Of a stretch of DNA of 53,079 nucleotides, positions 31,752 to 39,734 are shown piece by piece. The notes below the pieces were generated by a model. It was not told where the DNA came from. It was given only the letters and a program-made list of their open reading frames with translations, and searched no databases. Position numbers and translations under genes: made by a program. Source of the DNA: Acidimicrobiaceae bacterium (GTDB taxonomy: Bacteria > Actinomycetota > Acidimicrobiia > Acidimicrobiales > RAAP-2); the NCBI GenBank assembly GCA_003133325.1, contig PKXA01000031.1, positions 25,092-78,170 on the forward strand. The letters are read 5' to 3'. Each line of letters starts with the position of its first letter. Position 1 is the stretch's first letter.

Positions 31752-32230
31752 ACAGGGAAAGCTACTTGGCCTGGCCACCCCTGAAGCAAGTTGCAGGATG
31801 ATCGCCCCCGATGTGGCCCTTTGCTCTCTCAATGCTCTGCCACTGCTTTCCGTCGGACCGAATTCCCTAAAGCGTTAACATCGTGTTGCCGATGACGCAT
31901 CAGGCCCGTGTGCCGGTAGCGATGCACGCGGCGCACGCCGGTTGTATCAAATGCAGACGTATTCGGGTGCGCGAATCGGGTGAATCGTTCGGCGCGTACC
32001 CGGTGAATAAGATGTTCCGCTGAGCGACTTCGGCGGCTCTGATTCACTGGTTTGACCCGTTTTCATGCCGGAAAGTCCAAATATCGAAAGTTGGCGAAGG
32101 TGGCCCGGTTCCCCTTGCATGGATCAAACCACCGGCGGGGCGTCTTTCCACAACGTGGCGGTCAGGTGGATCCGCCAGCGGACGGCCTCGTACCCGTCAT
32201 GGGCTGGCACCAACAGCTCACGGACTCCGC
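31752..32230. other. 479-bp intergenic region, no gene seen
   Basis: It lies between the tRNA and the secreted repeat protein gene and is relatively AT-rich in places (for example AAATATCGAAAGTTGG near 32085). It probably holds the tRNA promoter and the promoter of the following gene. No RNA gene or repeat was recognised. Confidence 0.5.
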
Positions 32231-34090
32231 ATGCCTACGCGTAGCCCGGTTGGAGTTGTGAAGAGATCCGTTGTGTGGCTCTTGACAATGGCAATCGGTG
32301 TCATCGCCGGCACGTCTGTCGTTACTGCATTACCTGGCAGCGCCCGAGCGAGCATCAGCGAAACTCCGGCTGGTGTCCAACAATTCACCGGACGCGACGT
32401 GTACAACCCCGACGTGATGCCCAATGCCAACGGTCCGGGCTACGTCATGTGGTACGGCGGTTGGCAATCCCAGCAGACGGCCGACTCCGGGCAGGGAGAT
32501 TCCATCTACCAACGGACCGCTCCTGCCGTCAATGGCCCTTGGTCGAGTCCAATCACGGTCCTTGTCGCCTCGGAGGTTGCCCCGCTGATCACGGAAGTGA
32601 ACCATCCGGCGGTCAGCGTGACCTCCGCCGGTGGTTCGCTTCACTACACCATGTTCTTCACCGTTCTGGCGTGCCAAACAGGATCACCGGGATGCGTCAG
32701 TGCACAACAGTTGGAGAGCCACGGGGAAATTTGGTCAGGAACGTCCGTCGACGGCATCAATTGGGGGTCATTTCAGAGACTGGCCGTTTCCGATCCAAAT
32801 CAGTCGGGTGTTACTTCGCCGTGGAGCATCGTCCAGCCGTCAGGAGCACAGAATTGGTTGGTGTACTACGCATCCGGCTGTTTGATCGGCGTCGCCAGCG
32901 TCGACGCCAACCGGAATGTGCTCACATCTTCGATCACCTTCAAGGGGCCGGGGACCCAGTGCATGGCCAGCCCTCACGTCGTCGAAAGTGGCAACACGTG
33001 GTACATGTTCTTTGACGTGTTGGAACCGACGTATGCAGACTCAATTCGCTTTGACGTGTGGCAGACCAGTTCCGGTTCGCCGACCGACTGGTCTCATTCG
33101 ACCGCTTCTGCCGCAATCGTGGTGGACGGGATCACTTCCTGTGCGGTGCTTTCTCCCGATGTTCTTCCAGTGAATGCCACCCAGTACTTTGTCTACTACG
33201 GGCGGGTGGGCGTGGATGCCTCGGGCCGATGTGACGACTTGACGCAATCAACTTCGATCGAGCTGAGCTCCGGCTCGTTTCCGGCCACAGATCCTTCGCC
33301 GATCACCTCTCCACCGACAGCTCCGTCCCAGGGCTGCGTGCGAATGCCTGCGGGCTCGGTGGTGGGCATGTTTGCCACCCCCACTGACAATGGGTACTGG
33401 ATTGTTGACGCCATGGGCCAGGTGGACGCCTGCGGCGACGCCGCCACCAGTTACGGCCAAATCTCGGCTCCCTTGGCTGCGCCAATTGTCGGAATGGTGG
33501 CTACCCCCGACGGTAAGGGCTATTGGTTGGTAGCGAGCGATGGCGGCATCTTCAGCTTCGGGGATGCCGGATTCTTCGGATCAGCAGGCGGTCATGCATT
33601 GAACAAACCGATCGTGGGAATGGCAGCTACGCCCGACGGGAATGGTTACTGGCTGGTGGCAAGCGATGGCGGCATCTTCAGCTTTGGGGATGCCAATTTC
33701 CATGGTTCGACCGGCAACATCACCCTGAATCGGCCGATTGTCGGCATGGCGGTCGACCCGGCCACCGGTGGCTATTGGATCGATGCCTCCGATGGCGGGA
33801 TTTTCGCATTCGATGCCCCGTTCTATGGCTCGATGGGTGGGCGGCCGCTCGCCCAGCCCGTTGTGGGTATGGACGTGAATCTGGTCAATGACTCCTACTA
33901 CCTCGTTGCAGCCGACGGCGGAGTCTTTGCGTTCGGGGTCCCGTTCTTGGGCTCTACCGGCAGCATCAGGTTGTCCCACCCCATCGTGGCGATGGAGTCA
34001 GCCCCCTCGGGATACGGTTACCGGTTCGTCGCCAGCGATGGCGGGGTCTTCTCTTTCGGCTCCAGCCACTTTTACGGATCGGCCACGTAA
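32231..34090 (+). CDS. Secreted protein: glycosidase-like five-bladed propeller domain plus six C-terminal repeats
   Basis: 619 residues with a signal peptide (VVWLLTMAIGVIAGTSVVTA, cleavage near ARA-S). Residues about 45-355 contain features of GH43/GH32-like propellers (VYNPDVMPNANGPGYVMWYG, EVNHPAVSVTS, QCMASPHVVESGNTWYMFFD, AVLSPDVLPVNATQYFVYYG) with regularly spaced Asp/Glu, but I cannot confirm catalytic residues. From Ser376 to the end run six repeats of about 41 residues of the form PIVGMAATPDGNGYWLVASD GGIFSFGDA-FHGS. Such repeats are frequent in exported proteins of Acidimicrobiia. Its likely place is outside the cell, with a carbohydrate or cell-wall target. Confidence 0.87.
   Translation: MPTRSPVGVVKRSVVWLLTMAIGVIAGTSVVTALPGSARASISETPAGVQQFTGRDVYNPDVMPNANGPGYVMWYGGWQSQQTADSGQGDSIYQRTAPAVNGPWSSPITVLVASEVAPLITEVNHPAVSVTSAGGSLHYTMFFTVLACQTGSPGCVSAQQLESHGEIWSGTSVDGINWGSFQRLAVSDPNQSGVTSPWSIVQPSGAQNWLVYYASGCLIGVASVDANRNVLTSSITFKGPGTQCMASPHVVESGNTWYMFFDVLEPTYADSIRFDVWQTSSGSPTDWSHSTASAAIVVDGITSCAVLSPDVLPVNATQYFVYYGRVGVDASGRCDDLTQSTSIELSSGSFPATDPSPITSPPTAPSQGCVRMPAGSVVGMFATPTDNGYWIVDAMGQVDACGDAATSYGQISAPLAAPIVGMVATPDGKGYWLVASDGGIFSFGDAGFFGSAGGHALNKPIVGMAATPDGNGYWLVASDGGIFSFGDANFHGSTGNITLNRPIVGMAVDPATGGYWIDASDGGIFAFDAPFYGSMGGRPLAQPVVGMDVNLVNDSYYLVAADGGVFAFGVPFLGSTGSIRLSHPIVAMESAPSGYGYRFVASDGGVFSFGSSHFYGSAT
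33356..34087 (+). repeat. Six tandem ~41-residue coding repeats
   Basis: Units begin at VVGM/PIVGM and contain GYWLVASDGGIFSFGDA and F-GS-G. Units 2 and 3 are nearly identical at protein level, units 1, 4, 5 and 6 have diverged. They probably fold as beta blades of a six-bladed propeller. Confidence 0.85.
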
Positions 34091-37745: not shown

Positions 37746-38162
37746 CTACTTTTTGGTCTCCCAGAAGATTCTGTCGATCTCGGCAATTTCGGCCAACAGG
37801 CGTTCGCCCACCTTCACGTCGTTGGTCTTCTTCGCCTCGCCGGCCGTCTTGGTGGCCTTCCAGAAGAGATCGTGAAGCTGAGGATGCTTCTCGAGATGCT
37901 CGGGCTTGAAGTAGTCGGTCCAGAGCACCCACAGGTGGTGCTTCACCAGCTCGGCGCGCTCTTCCTTGATGATGATGGCCCGCGTCTTGAACGACTCGTC
38001 ATCGGAGCCGTTGTACTTGTCCATGGTGTTCTTCACCGACTCGGCCTCGATACGGGCCTGGGCCGGGTCGTAGACGCCACAGGGCAGATCGCAGTGGGCG
38101 TGACCGGTCACCGGCGTGGCCAGATGGTCGAGGGTGGTCAACAGACGATTGGCGATTCGCAT
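37746..38162 (-). CDS. sodN: Nickel superoxide dismutase
   Basis: 138 residues. The nickel hook HCDLPCGVYDP starts at His23, after a 22-residue propeptide that must be removed so that the His amino group ligates Ni (His1, Cys2, Cys6 of the mature enzyme). The rest is the helical bundle (NTMDKYNGSDDESFKTRAII; ERAELVKHHLWVLWTDYFKP). It detoxifies superoxide in the cytoplasm. The maturation protease gene sodX is divergent, 78 bp away. Start ATG 38162 has AAGGAG upstream. This adds a nickel demand to that of CODH and hydrogenase in the same window. Confidence 0.97.
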   Translation of the reverse strand: MRIANRLLTTLDHLATPVTGHAHCDLPCGVYDPAQARIEAESVKNTMDKYNGSDDESFKTRAIIIKEERAELVKHHLWVLWTDYFKPEHLEKHPQLHDLFWKATKTAGEAKKTNDVKVGERLLAEIAEIDRIFWETKK

Positions 38163-38240
38163 GGGGCAACGCTCCTTGTGGGTTCTCTAGGGCAAAGTAG
38201 GTGAGATGCACTTCCGGTCCACCTTACCCAGGTTCTTCTG

Positions 38241-38732
38241 ATGGCGGTCCGCCACATTACTCCTACCCAAAGAAGGGCCCTGGCAACCCTCTCCGCCGTC
38301 ATTGCCATTCTCATCGGGAGCGGAATGTGGTTGGCCAGATCGGTGCGCAGGGTGAGCATCGAGGGTGGATCGATGGCGCCGGCCCTGCTTCCCGGCGACA
38401 GGCTCCTGATGATCAAACCGCCACAGTTGCTGCGATCGCGATTTATCGGAAAGGAGCCATGGATGAAGCCGGGAGAGGTGGTGGCGGTCCGCGACCCTCG
38501 GCATCCAGCCAGAATCCTGGTCAAGCGCGTGGCGTCCGTCGACCGGAAGGGCCGCACCCTCGAAGTCCTGGGCGATGCCAGCCAGACGAGCACCGACAGC
38601 CGGACGTTCGGGCCGGTTCCCCTCTCGTCGGTCCTGGGTCGGGCGGTCTACCGATATGCCCCGGACGGACGGACGGGTCGTGGCCCCTGGCCCGCGAGTA
38701 CGATCGTCGGTAATGGCGAGTCTTCAGGCTGA
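38241..38732 (+). CDS. sodX: SodX-type S26 signal peptidase for Ni-SOD maturation
   Basis: 163 residues with a single N-terminal hydrophobic helix ALATLSAVIAILIGSGMWLA, the nucleophile motif EGGSMAPALLPGDRLL (Ser44) and the general-base region RILVKRVASV (Lys95), forming the Ser/Lys dyad of type I signal peptidases. Location opposite sodN is the standard arrangement for the protease that trims the SodN propeptide. Its 3' end overlaps the rsiG-like start by 20 bp. Confidence 0.93.
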   Translation: MAVRHITPTQRRALATLSAVIAILIGSGMWLARSVRRVSIEGGSMAPALLPGDRLLMIKPPQLLRSRFIGKEPWMKPGEVVAVRDPRHPARILVKRVASVDRKGRTLEVLGDASQTSTDSRTFGPVPLSSVLGRAVYRYAPDGRTGRGPWPASTIVGNGESSG

Positions 38733-39279
38733 TCTCGATCGTCTTCTTATCGACTCCTACCTCAACGGTATCGAGTCCAAGTCGCTCGACGACATCCGGG
38801 CCTTGCGCGCCGAATGCCAGGATGCCGAAGTCGCCCTGTCCTACCTCCGTCGGCTGGCCCAGGGCCGTCTCGATATCGTGCACGCCTATCTGGTCCGCAC
38901 TGACCGCACCGGCGACGATGCCACCTCGGCCTCCGAGCCCCCCGATCTCGCCGCTCTGGTCGAAGGGCTTCCTGCCATCCTCAGCGCCGGACCGGGTCGG
39001 CCACCCGGACCAGGGCGTCCGATGACAGTGCTGGCTCCCGATACCGAGGAGTCCGACCTCACCGAGGAGCTCGACTCCGTGGTGAGCTCCAATGAAATCG
39101 GTCATCTCGGTGACCTGAGCCAGGAGCGGCTCGGCGCCATGGCTGCCGGGCTCGAGGAAATTGAACATCGCGTATCGGTCGACCGCCGTCGCCTCCACCA
39201 ACGTATCGATGCGCTTCAGGCCGAACTGGTGAGCCGCTACAAGTCGGGGCGCGCCTCGGTCGACGGCCTGCTCTCGTGA
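38713..39279 (+). CDS. rsiG: RsiG-like c-di-GMP-responsive anti-sigma factor
   Basis: A 188-residue helical protein from ATG 38713. In Streptomyces, RsiG binds c-di-GMP through two E(X)3S(X)2R(X)3Q(X)3D motifs and sequesters sigma WhiG. Here helix one has a perfect copy: E39, S43, R46, Q50, D54 (EVALSYLRRLAQGRLD). Helix three has E151, S155, R158, His162 in place of Gln, and D166 (EHRVSVDRRRLHQRID), an otherwise exact copy. A Pro/Gly-rich linker (SAGPGRPPGPGRP) joins the coils. So it is the two-motif architecture with one substitution. The stop overlaps the XRE gene start (GTGA). No WhiG-like sigma gene is in the window. Confidence 0.88.
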   Translation: MASLQADLDRLLIDSYLNGIESKSLDDIRALRAECQDAEVALSYLRRLAQGRLDIVHAYLVRTDRTGDDATSASEPPDLAALVEGLPAILSAGPGRPPGPGRPMTVLAPDTEESDLTEELDSVVSSNEIGHLGDLSQERLGAMAAGLEEIEHRVSVDRRRLHQRIDALQAELVSRYKSGRASVDGLLS

Positions 39280-39734
39280 GAACCAAAAAGGACTCCCATG
39301 TCGAGAGAATCCCCATCGTGAAGGAGCTGCCGGAACGGTTCAACGAGCTCGGTTCGTTCATTCGCGAGCAGCGGGGAAACGCCCGGTTGTCGTTGCGACG
39401 ACTCTCCGAACTGGCCGGGATCTCGAACCCGTACCTGAGTCAGATCGAGCGGGGGTTGCGACGCCCGTCCGCGGAGATTCTCCAACAGATCGCTAAGGCG
39501 CTGCGTATTTCGGCCGAGACCCTCTACGTCCAAGCCGGCATCCTCGAGAAGCCCGATGGAAACACCGATCTCGGCCGCCACATCTTCGGCGACAGCCATT
39601 TGACCGAGGAGCAGAAGCAGGCGCTGATGAGGATCTATCTGTCCTTCCGGCACGAGAGCGAAGGCAATGACGTTGCCACTGCCGCCGATGGGGGTGCGGG
39701 TACCGCCGCCCACGAAGGCCCCTCCACCGGCTGA
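39276..39734 (+). CDS. XRE-family transcriptional regulator
   Basis: 152 residues. The helix-turn-helix is LRRLSELAGISNPYLSQIER with GLRRPSAEILQQIAKALRIS completing the Cro/CI fold. A C-terminal segment HLTEEQKQALMRIYLSFRHE and an Ala/Gly-rich tail follow. Start GTG 39276 overlaps the rsiG-like stop, with an ATG at 39299 out of frame. Close coupling to the RsiG-like gene suggests joint control of a developmental or envelope programme. Its target is unknown. Confidence 0.9.
   Translation: MRTKKDSHVERIPIVKELPERFNELGSFIREQRGNARLSLRRLSELAGISNPYLSQIERGLRRPSAEILQQIAKALRISAETLYVQAGILEKPDGNTDLGRHIFGDSHLTEEQKQALMRIYLSFRHESEGNDVATAADGGAGTAAHEGPSTG

What the first reader, a model, noticed from the sequence alone, without database searches (positions are those of the whole stretch)
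38713..39279. RsiG-like anti-sigma with a Gln-to-His change in its second c-di-GMP motif
Motif one is exact (E39-S43-R46-Q50-D54). Motif two keeps E151, S155, R158 and D166 but has His162 for Gln. The two-motif architecture is that of Streptomyces RsiG, while Rubrobacter has one. This is an informative point in the evolution of the sigma/c-di-GMP switch outside Streptomyces. It is coupled to an XRE regulator.
Basis: partly seen in the sequence, partly recalled or inferred. Interest (0 to 1): 0.55.

Follow-up and report, generated by a model that had tools for sequence, protein, structure and literature searches.

The report
Pilus-linked c-di-GMP anti-sigma factor RsiG
This gene encodes an ordinary two-site member of a known signal-controlled brake on a sigma factor; its supposedly odd histidine is the usual residue in its bacterial class, but genome comparisons suggest that the brake there controls surface pili rather than spores, which is a new and testable link.

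Summary
ORF 38713-39279 is a twin-motif RsiG (Pfam 84.8 bits, cut-off 27; the model's best PDB matches are S. venezuelae RsiG) with Gln50 in motif 1 and His162 in motif 2. His162 is the class norm: 68 of 109 class RsiGs have His there, 21 Phe, 13 Gln, 6 Tyr, 1 gap. A 2021 paper already reports Gln/His exchange in motif 1, c-di-GMP binding by a His-type RsiG, and twin-motif RsiG in 3 of 4 Acidimicrobiales. The genome has a WhiG sigma factor (256 bits) and seven GGDEF domains over cut-off. RsiG and WhiG co-occur across 247 class genomes (150 both, 82 neither, 15 discordant).

New here: the only perfect TAAA-N15/16-GCCGATAA site in this 4.05-Mb genome lies 28 bp before a type IV prepilin operon. 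WhiG-type sites precede 26 of 115 class pilin genes, against 4 of 329 upstreams of other genes. A switch with twin-motif RsiG therefore probably controls type IV pili here, a role so far published only for single-motif Rubrobacter. The XRE coupling is real and conserved among close relatives; its meaning is unknown.

The parts
38713..39279 (+). rsiG: twin-motif c-di-GMP-dependent anti-sigma factor, 188 aa
   Evidence: Pfam RsiG 84.8 bits; PDB 6pfj_T E 1.9e-12; fold match to 6pfv/6pfj
38827..38874 (+). motif 1, E39-S43-R46-Q50-D54, on helix 25-66
39163..39210 (+). motif 2, E151-S155-R158-H162-D166, on helix 137-178; His162 codon CAC at 39196-39198
39276..39734 (+). XRE-type HTH regulator, GTG start overlapping the rsiG stop by four bases
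   Evidence: Pfam HTH_3 50.9 bits; next gene in 23 of 23 closest relatives, 43 of 80 named and 53 of 109 class loci
38241..38732 (+). sodX-like nickel superoxide dismutase maturation protease, overlapping the rsiG start by 20 bases; neighbour, not shown to belong to the switch
   Evidence: TIGR02754 64.5 bits, cut-off 63.25; found in 22 of 23 closest relatives
31868..31895 (+). candidate WhiG-type promoter, one mismatch (TAAA-N16-GCCGATGA), 335 bases before ATG 32231 of a secreted repeat protein; tentative
   Evidence: one of three one-mismatch N16 sites in the genome; a similar repeat protein follows a second one; distance is long and the genome shows no general excess of weaker sites

Best explanation
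The protein is a genuine twin-motif RsiG. When c-di-GMP is high, two c-di-GMP molecules bind as an intercalated dimer across its antiparallel coiled coil, with Gln50 and His162 as the guanine-stacking residues. This arms it to hold the sigma factor WhiG away from RNA polymerase; when c-di-GMP falls, WhiG is released. Shown here: family, fold, both motifs, a WhiG with the c-di-GMP-contacting residues, cyclase domains in the genome, and strong RsiG/WhiG co-occurrence. Inferred from characterised homologues: binding, stoichiometry, sequestration. Inferred from promoter sequences: a main output in this class is type IV pilins, not sporulation. His162 is a conservative, lineage-typical residue that should keep binding.
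For: RsiG family, sequence and fold matches. WhiG in the genome, 256.5 bits against a cut-off of 189.6, best PDB match S. venezuelae WhiG at 296 bits against 148 for the best FliA, with K..GR kept. Seven GGDEF matches over cut-off. Co-occurrence 150 both, 5 RsiG only, 10 WhiG only, 82 neither of 247. His is the commonest motif-2 state, and a His-type RsiG binds c-di-GMP (PMC8325347). One perfect WhiG-type site in the genome, 28 bp before a prepilin operon, and another before a homologous prepilin in a genome of another family. WhiG-type sites in 26 of 115 pilin upstreams against 4 of 329 upstreams of other genes and 33 of 4000 random windows.
Against: No genome-wide excess of weaker WhiG-type sites in the own genome (72 against 70 reversed), none of the scanned strict sites at the main pil cluster, and 89 of 115 pilin upstreams have no site within two mismatches. 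WhiG-negative genomes gave 0 of 6 upstreams, too few to test the link. Two pilin hits are in genomes where RsiG was not found (G068, G228). Relatedness inflates all p-values. Nothing was measured on this protein.
Confidence: 0.7

Rival explanations
1. His162 weakens or abolishes the second c-di-GMP site, so this RsiG is an asymmetric or c-di-GMP-independent anti-sigma factor.
For: Motif 2 is the freer one: Phe, Tyr, Leu and Met also occur there, while motif 1 had only Gln or His in the loci read.
Against: E, S, R and D of motif 2 are invariant or nearly so in 51 aligned relatives, and a His-type RsiG binds c-di-GMP and its WhiG (PMC8325347).
Confidence: 0.12
2. The switch is real, but the pilin promoters are read by another sigma factor, and RsiG-WhiG controls something else, such as secreted repeat proteins or morphogenesis.
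For: Five further sigma-like matches lie below the WhiG cut-off in the genome; two of the three one-mismatch sites precede secreted repeat proteins.
Against: Only one sigma is over the FliA/WhiG cut-off; the site matches the promoter class mapped for Rubrobacter pil genes (PMC8325347).
Confidence: 0.2
3. RsiG acts with the XRE regulator next door as a two-gene unit, the XRE being a co-regulator of the same response.
For: Four-base overlap, next gene in 23 of 23 closest relatives.
Against: XRE is next in only 53 of 109 class loci, so RsiG is often kept without it; only an HTH domain was found.
Confidence: 0.1

Closest known systems
[quoted passage not shown]
   Same: Twin motifs on two antiparallel helices, same fold (Foldseek E 2.2e-5; VIA Z 12.7 over 154 residues), WhiG partner in the genome
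   Different: Gln in both motifs there (also in 19 of 19 loci of family f71 read), His in motif 2 here; sporulation there, predicted pili here
Rubrobacter radiotolerans (RsiG)2-(c-di-GMP)2-WhiG (PDB 7lq2-7lq4)
   Same: WhiG-type promoters before type IV pilus genes (PMC8325347)
   Different: Single motif, acts as a homodimer; promoters there were backed by mapped transcription starts, here only by sequence
Conexibacter woesei RsiG
   Same: His at the stacking position with measured c-di-GMP binding (PMC8325347)
   Different: Single motif, so His on both sides of the dimer

Membership tests
RsiG (PF22802) | Pfam RsiG score over the curated cut-off | tested here: met
   84.8 bits against 27
RsiG (PF22802) | Two E(X)3S(X)2R(X)3[Q/H](X)3D motifs (twin-motif form) | tested here: met
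   Residues 39-54 with Gln, 151-166 with His; [Q/H] as the 2021 paper writes it
RsiG (PF22802) | Antiparallel coiled coil with the fold of S. venezuelae RsiG | tested here: met
   Model pLDDT 85.5; Foldseek TMt 0.72-0.75 to 6pfv; Z 12.7 against 8.9 for the next unrelated chain
RsiG (PF22802) | Binds c-di-GMP | not testable with these tools
   Inferred from conserved residues and characterised homologues
RsiG-WhiG switch | WhiG homologue in the same genome with the c-di-GMP-contacting K, G and R | tested here: met
   256.5 bits, LVKFVAGR aligned to LVKYVAGR of S. venezuelae WhiG
RsiG-WhiG switch | c-di-GMP-dependent sequestration of WhiG by RsiG | not testable with these tools
   No interaction was tested
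RsiG-WhiG switch controlling type IV pili | WhiG/flagellar-type promoters before pilus genes | tested here: met
   Own genome: the single perfect site; class: 26 of 115 pilin upstreams against 4 of 329 others. Sequence only
RsiG-WhiG switch controlling type IV pili | Transcription of pilus genes by WhiG | not testable with these tools
   Needs 5'-end mapping or in vitro transcription

The most novel reading that the evidence does not exclude
Type IV pilus control is the ancestral job of the RsiG-WhiG switch: it was kept through the internal duplication that made twin-motif RsiG, is still used across Acidimicrobiia, and was replaced by sporulation only in the lineage leading to Streptomyces. 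After the duplication the stacking position of motif 2, but not that of motif 1, was freed to become His, Phe, Tyr, Leu or Met.
Probability: 0.5. Interest if true: 0.6.

Novelty: new member of a known kind. Interest (0 to 1): 0.45.

Why it matters
The published view sets single-motif RsiG with pili in unicellular bacteria against twin-motif RsiG with spores in Streptomyces. WhiG-type pilin promoters in a twin-motif class would uncouple architecture from output and suggest that pili came first. His162 itself matters little, since it is the normal state of the class. If true, the pilin promoters give a simple reporter for asking how c-di-GMP controls surface attachment in Acidimicrobiia, many of which are known only from assembled environmental genomes.

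Tried and rejected
Tried without result: Rfam on the window found only a tRNA, so no known c-di-GMP riboswitch reached threshold. N15 promoter pattern within 1 mismatch in the own genome: no match. N16 within 2 mismatches: 72 against 70 in the reversed control, so genome-wide counting is uninformative. Exact N15/16 pattern over 247 class genomes: 41 genomes matched; control columns also hold many matches, and many hits lie in family f27, where RsiG was not found. Viral contigs: no RsiG relative. A WhiG-type site before rsiG itself: 3 of 109 RsiG upstreams within 2 mismatches, so no autoregulation is claimed. The first neighbour script used stop-to-stop frames and misjudged directions; one search replaces it. 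Considered and rejected: that the His is an assembly or alignment quirk (22 of 23 closest named relatives have His, one Phe); that the sigma is a flagellar FliA rather than WhiG. Flagellar genes of the genome were not searched.

Literature: PMC8325347 was read in parts 1-6 of 9 and by passages. All other papers were seen only in search listings. That pilus control by a twin-motif RsiG is not in print rests on these searches of an open-access library only.

Full report
Observation. The ORF at 38713-39279 encodes 188 aa with E39-S43-R46-Q50-D54 and E151-S155-R158-H162-D166; the His codon is CAC at 39196-39198. It is an RsiG by Pfam (84.8 bits against a cut-off of 27), by sequence to S. venezuelae RsiG (E 1.9e-12; profile E 3.7e-35) and by fold. 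An AlphaFold2 model from 51 aligned sequences (pLDDT 85.5) has two 42-residue helices, 25-66 and 137-178, each with its motif starting at the 15th residue. The three Foldseek hits with E under 0.001 are all S. venezuelae RsiG, and VIA-align gives Z 12.7 and 12.2 for it against 8.9 for the next, unrelated chain.

Where it comes from. The closest named relatives (94% identity) are an Acidimicrobiales and an Acidimicrobiaceae assembled genome whose isolate names (Chersky, palsa) suggest permafrost and peat (the habitat is my reading of the names). The window lies in contig C129 of a 4.05-Mb, 133-contig assembly with one RsiG gene (two matches, one per motif).

Is His162 special? No. PF22802 was found in 155 of 247 class genomes. 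I read 109 of these loci (30 given by the search, 79 fetched and chosen by me from the listing; 46 genomes not read). The motif-2 stacking position is His in 68, Phe in 21, Gln in 13, Tyr in 6 and a gap in 1; motif 1 is Gln in 73 and His in 36. The pair Gln/Gln never occurs among these 109. In 80 named loci motif 2 is His in 51, Phe in 26, Gln in 3 (motif 1 is biased there because the search pattern contained its Gln). On a tree of 110 rows with both positions left out, motif 2 needs at least 10 changes (shuffled mean 37.3) and motif 1 at least 4 (quick tree, many branches weak). Outside the class, of 50 loci read 41 are twin-motif and 9 single-motif; in the 41, motif 2 is Gln in 25 (19 of them from family f71, which I take to be Streptomyces), Leu in 9, His in 4, Phe in 2, Met in 1 (the strict E/S/R/D pattern would miss degenerate motifs). 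The 2021 paper PMC8325347 (parts 1-6 of 9 read) reports His as frequent in motif 1, says it suits the same stacking contact, measures binding by a His-type RsiG (Kd 25 uM alone, 1.7 uM with WhiG) and finds twin-motif RsiG in 3 of 4 Acidimicrobiales. What my wider sample adds is that motif 2 is the freer of the two.

Partner. The own genome has one sigma gene over the FliA/WhiG cut-off (256.5 against 189.6 bits; five weaker matches). Its best PDB match is S. venezuelae WhiG (296 bits; best FliA 148). It keeps LVKFVAGRV, with the K, G and R that touch c-di-GMP according to the paper; 29 of 30 class WhiG loci printed keep K..GR too (L207 has Ser for Gly). Across 247 class genomes 150 have both, 5 RsiG only, 10 WhiG only and 82 neither, 42 of the last from one family; Fisher p 2.4e-47 without correction for relatedness. 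Eight GGDEF matches were found, seven over the cut-off.

What it controls. The paper links single-motif RsiG-WhiG of Rubrobacter to type IV pili through promoters TAAA / GCCGATAA. In the own genome the pattern with N15 or N16 has exactly one perfect match and none in the reversed control: contig C28 79997-80024, 28 bp before the GTG of MRHEISDAG|VSLIEVMVAITVLVIVLVPALLL, a prepilin (N_methyl 24.2 bits, cut-off 21.2), followed by a second prepilin and a third gene. C28 also carries pilB with MshEN domains, a second ATPase, pilC and a pilA-like gene (pil names inferred from the Pfam matches). In G214, a genome of another family of the order, one of five perfect matches lies 7 bp before a GTG (19 bp before an ATG) of an ORF whose start is homologous to the same prepilin (40% over 63 aa, E 7e-13).

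Class-wide test. From the PF07963 search (117 of 247 genomes matched) I took 90 loci (30 given, 60 chosen by me from the listed places). A regular expression found 115 prepilin starts in 77 genomes. Of their 250-bp upstreams 26 hold a site within 2 mismatches (spacing 14-17), 8 of them within 1. Controls: opposite strand 3 and 1; 100 shuffles mean 1.67, maximum 6, and mean 0.09, maximum 1; 60 permuted consensuses mean 2.45, maximum 7, and mean 0.12, maximum 2; upstreams of six other genes 4 and 0 of 329; random windows 33 and 3 of 4000. Hits fall in 12 of 30 families and 23 of 77 genomes, against permuted means of 2.55 (maximum 8) and 2.92 (maximum 11) in 200 trials. The idea was first counted on the 30 given loci (39 upstreams, 5 hits); the other 60 loci served as a fresh set (76 upstreams; 32 matches, 10 of them within 1 mismatch, some being one site at two spacings; 5 on the opposite strand, shuffle mean 1.4). 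Hits are in major-pilin-like genes (21 of 62) and V-F-VR genes (5 of 8), none in 45 others. WhiG-negative genomes gave 0 of 6 upstreams, too few to be a test; loci from genomes without RsiG gave 2 of 12.

Against this reading. No genome-wide excess of weaker sites in the own genome (72 against 70). No site with an intact GCCGAT core within 2 mismatches at the main pil cluster (spacing 15-17). Most pilin upstreams have none. Relatedness inflates the significance. All statements on output are from sequence.

The neighbourhood. The XRE gene overlaps rsiG by four bases (GTGA) and follows it in 23 of 23 closest relatives, 43 of 80 named and 53 of 109 class loci, while the downstream glycosyltransferase (called MshA-like from recall, not by a family search) is within 3 kb in 82 of 109. 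So the coupling is an old gene order that many lineages lack, not a fixed partnership.

Verdict. Observation confirmed; the His change is ordinary for the class. The useful result is the predicted link of a twin-motif RsiG-WhiG switch to type IV pili.

Noticed in passing
window 31868-31895 (+) with ORF 32231-34090; genome contig C66 51077-51104 (L223): Two of the three one-mismatch WhiG-type N16 sites in the genome precede secreted proteins that share the repeat GYWL(V/I)ASDGGIFSFGDA; the third appears to lie inside an ORF. The window's 619-aa protein has no Pfam match.
   Followed up: partly
L280 8603-11233 (genome contig C28): The pilus ATPase PilB carries MshEN domains (PF05157, 2.7e-34), a domain type known from recall to bind c-di-GMP, so pili may be under c-di-GMP control at two levels.
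   Followed up: no
L156, L158, L167, L169, L170, L174-L178: In 10 of 41 twin-motif RsiGs outside the class the motif-2 stacking residue is Leu or Met, which cannot stack like Gln or His; the second site may work differently there.
   Followed up: no
genomes G346 and G302 (L173, L179): Six and five PF22802 matches in one genome, suggesting several RsiG copies; the 2021 paper reports a second copy in only one of 134 genomes.
   Followed up: no
window 37746-38732: A nickel superoxide dismutase gene (-) lies divergent from its maturation protease gene (+), which overlaps rsiG by 20 bases; sodX is found in 22 and sodN in 18 of 23 closest relatives but in 10 of 109 class loci each.
   Followed up: partly
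family f1 of the class survey: Only 2 of the 16 genomes of the window's own family in the survey have RsiG, and the same two have WhiG; the other 14 (1.5-2.2 Mb) lack both, which looks like joint loss in small genomes.
   Followed up: no
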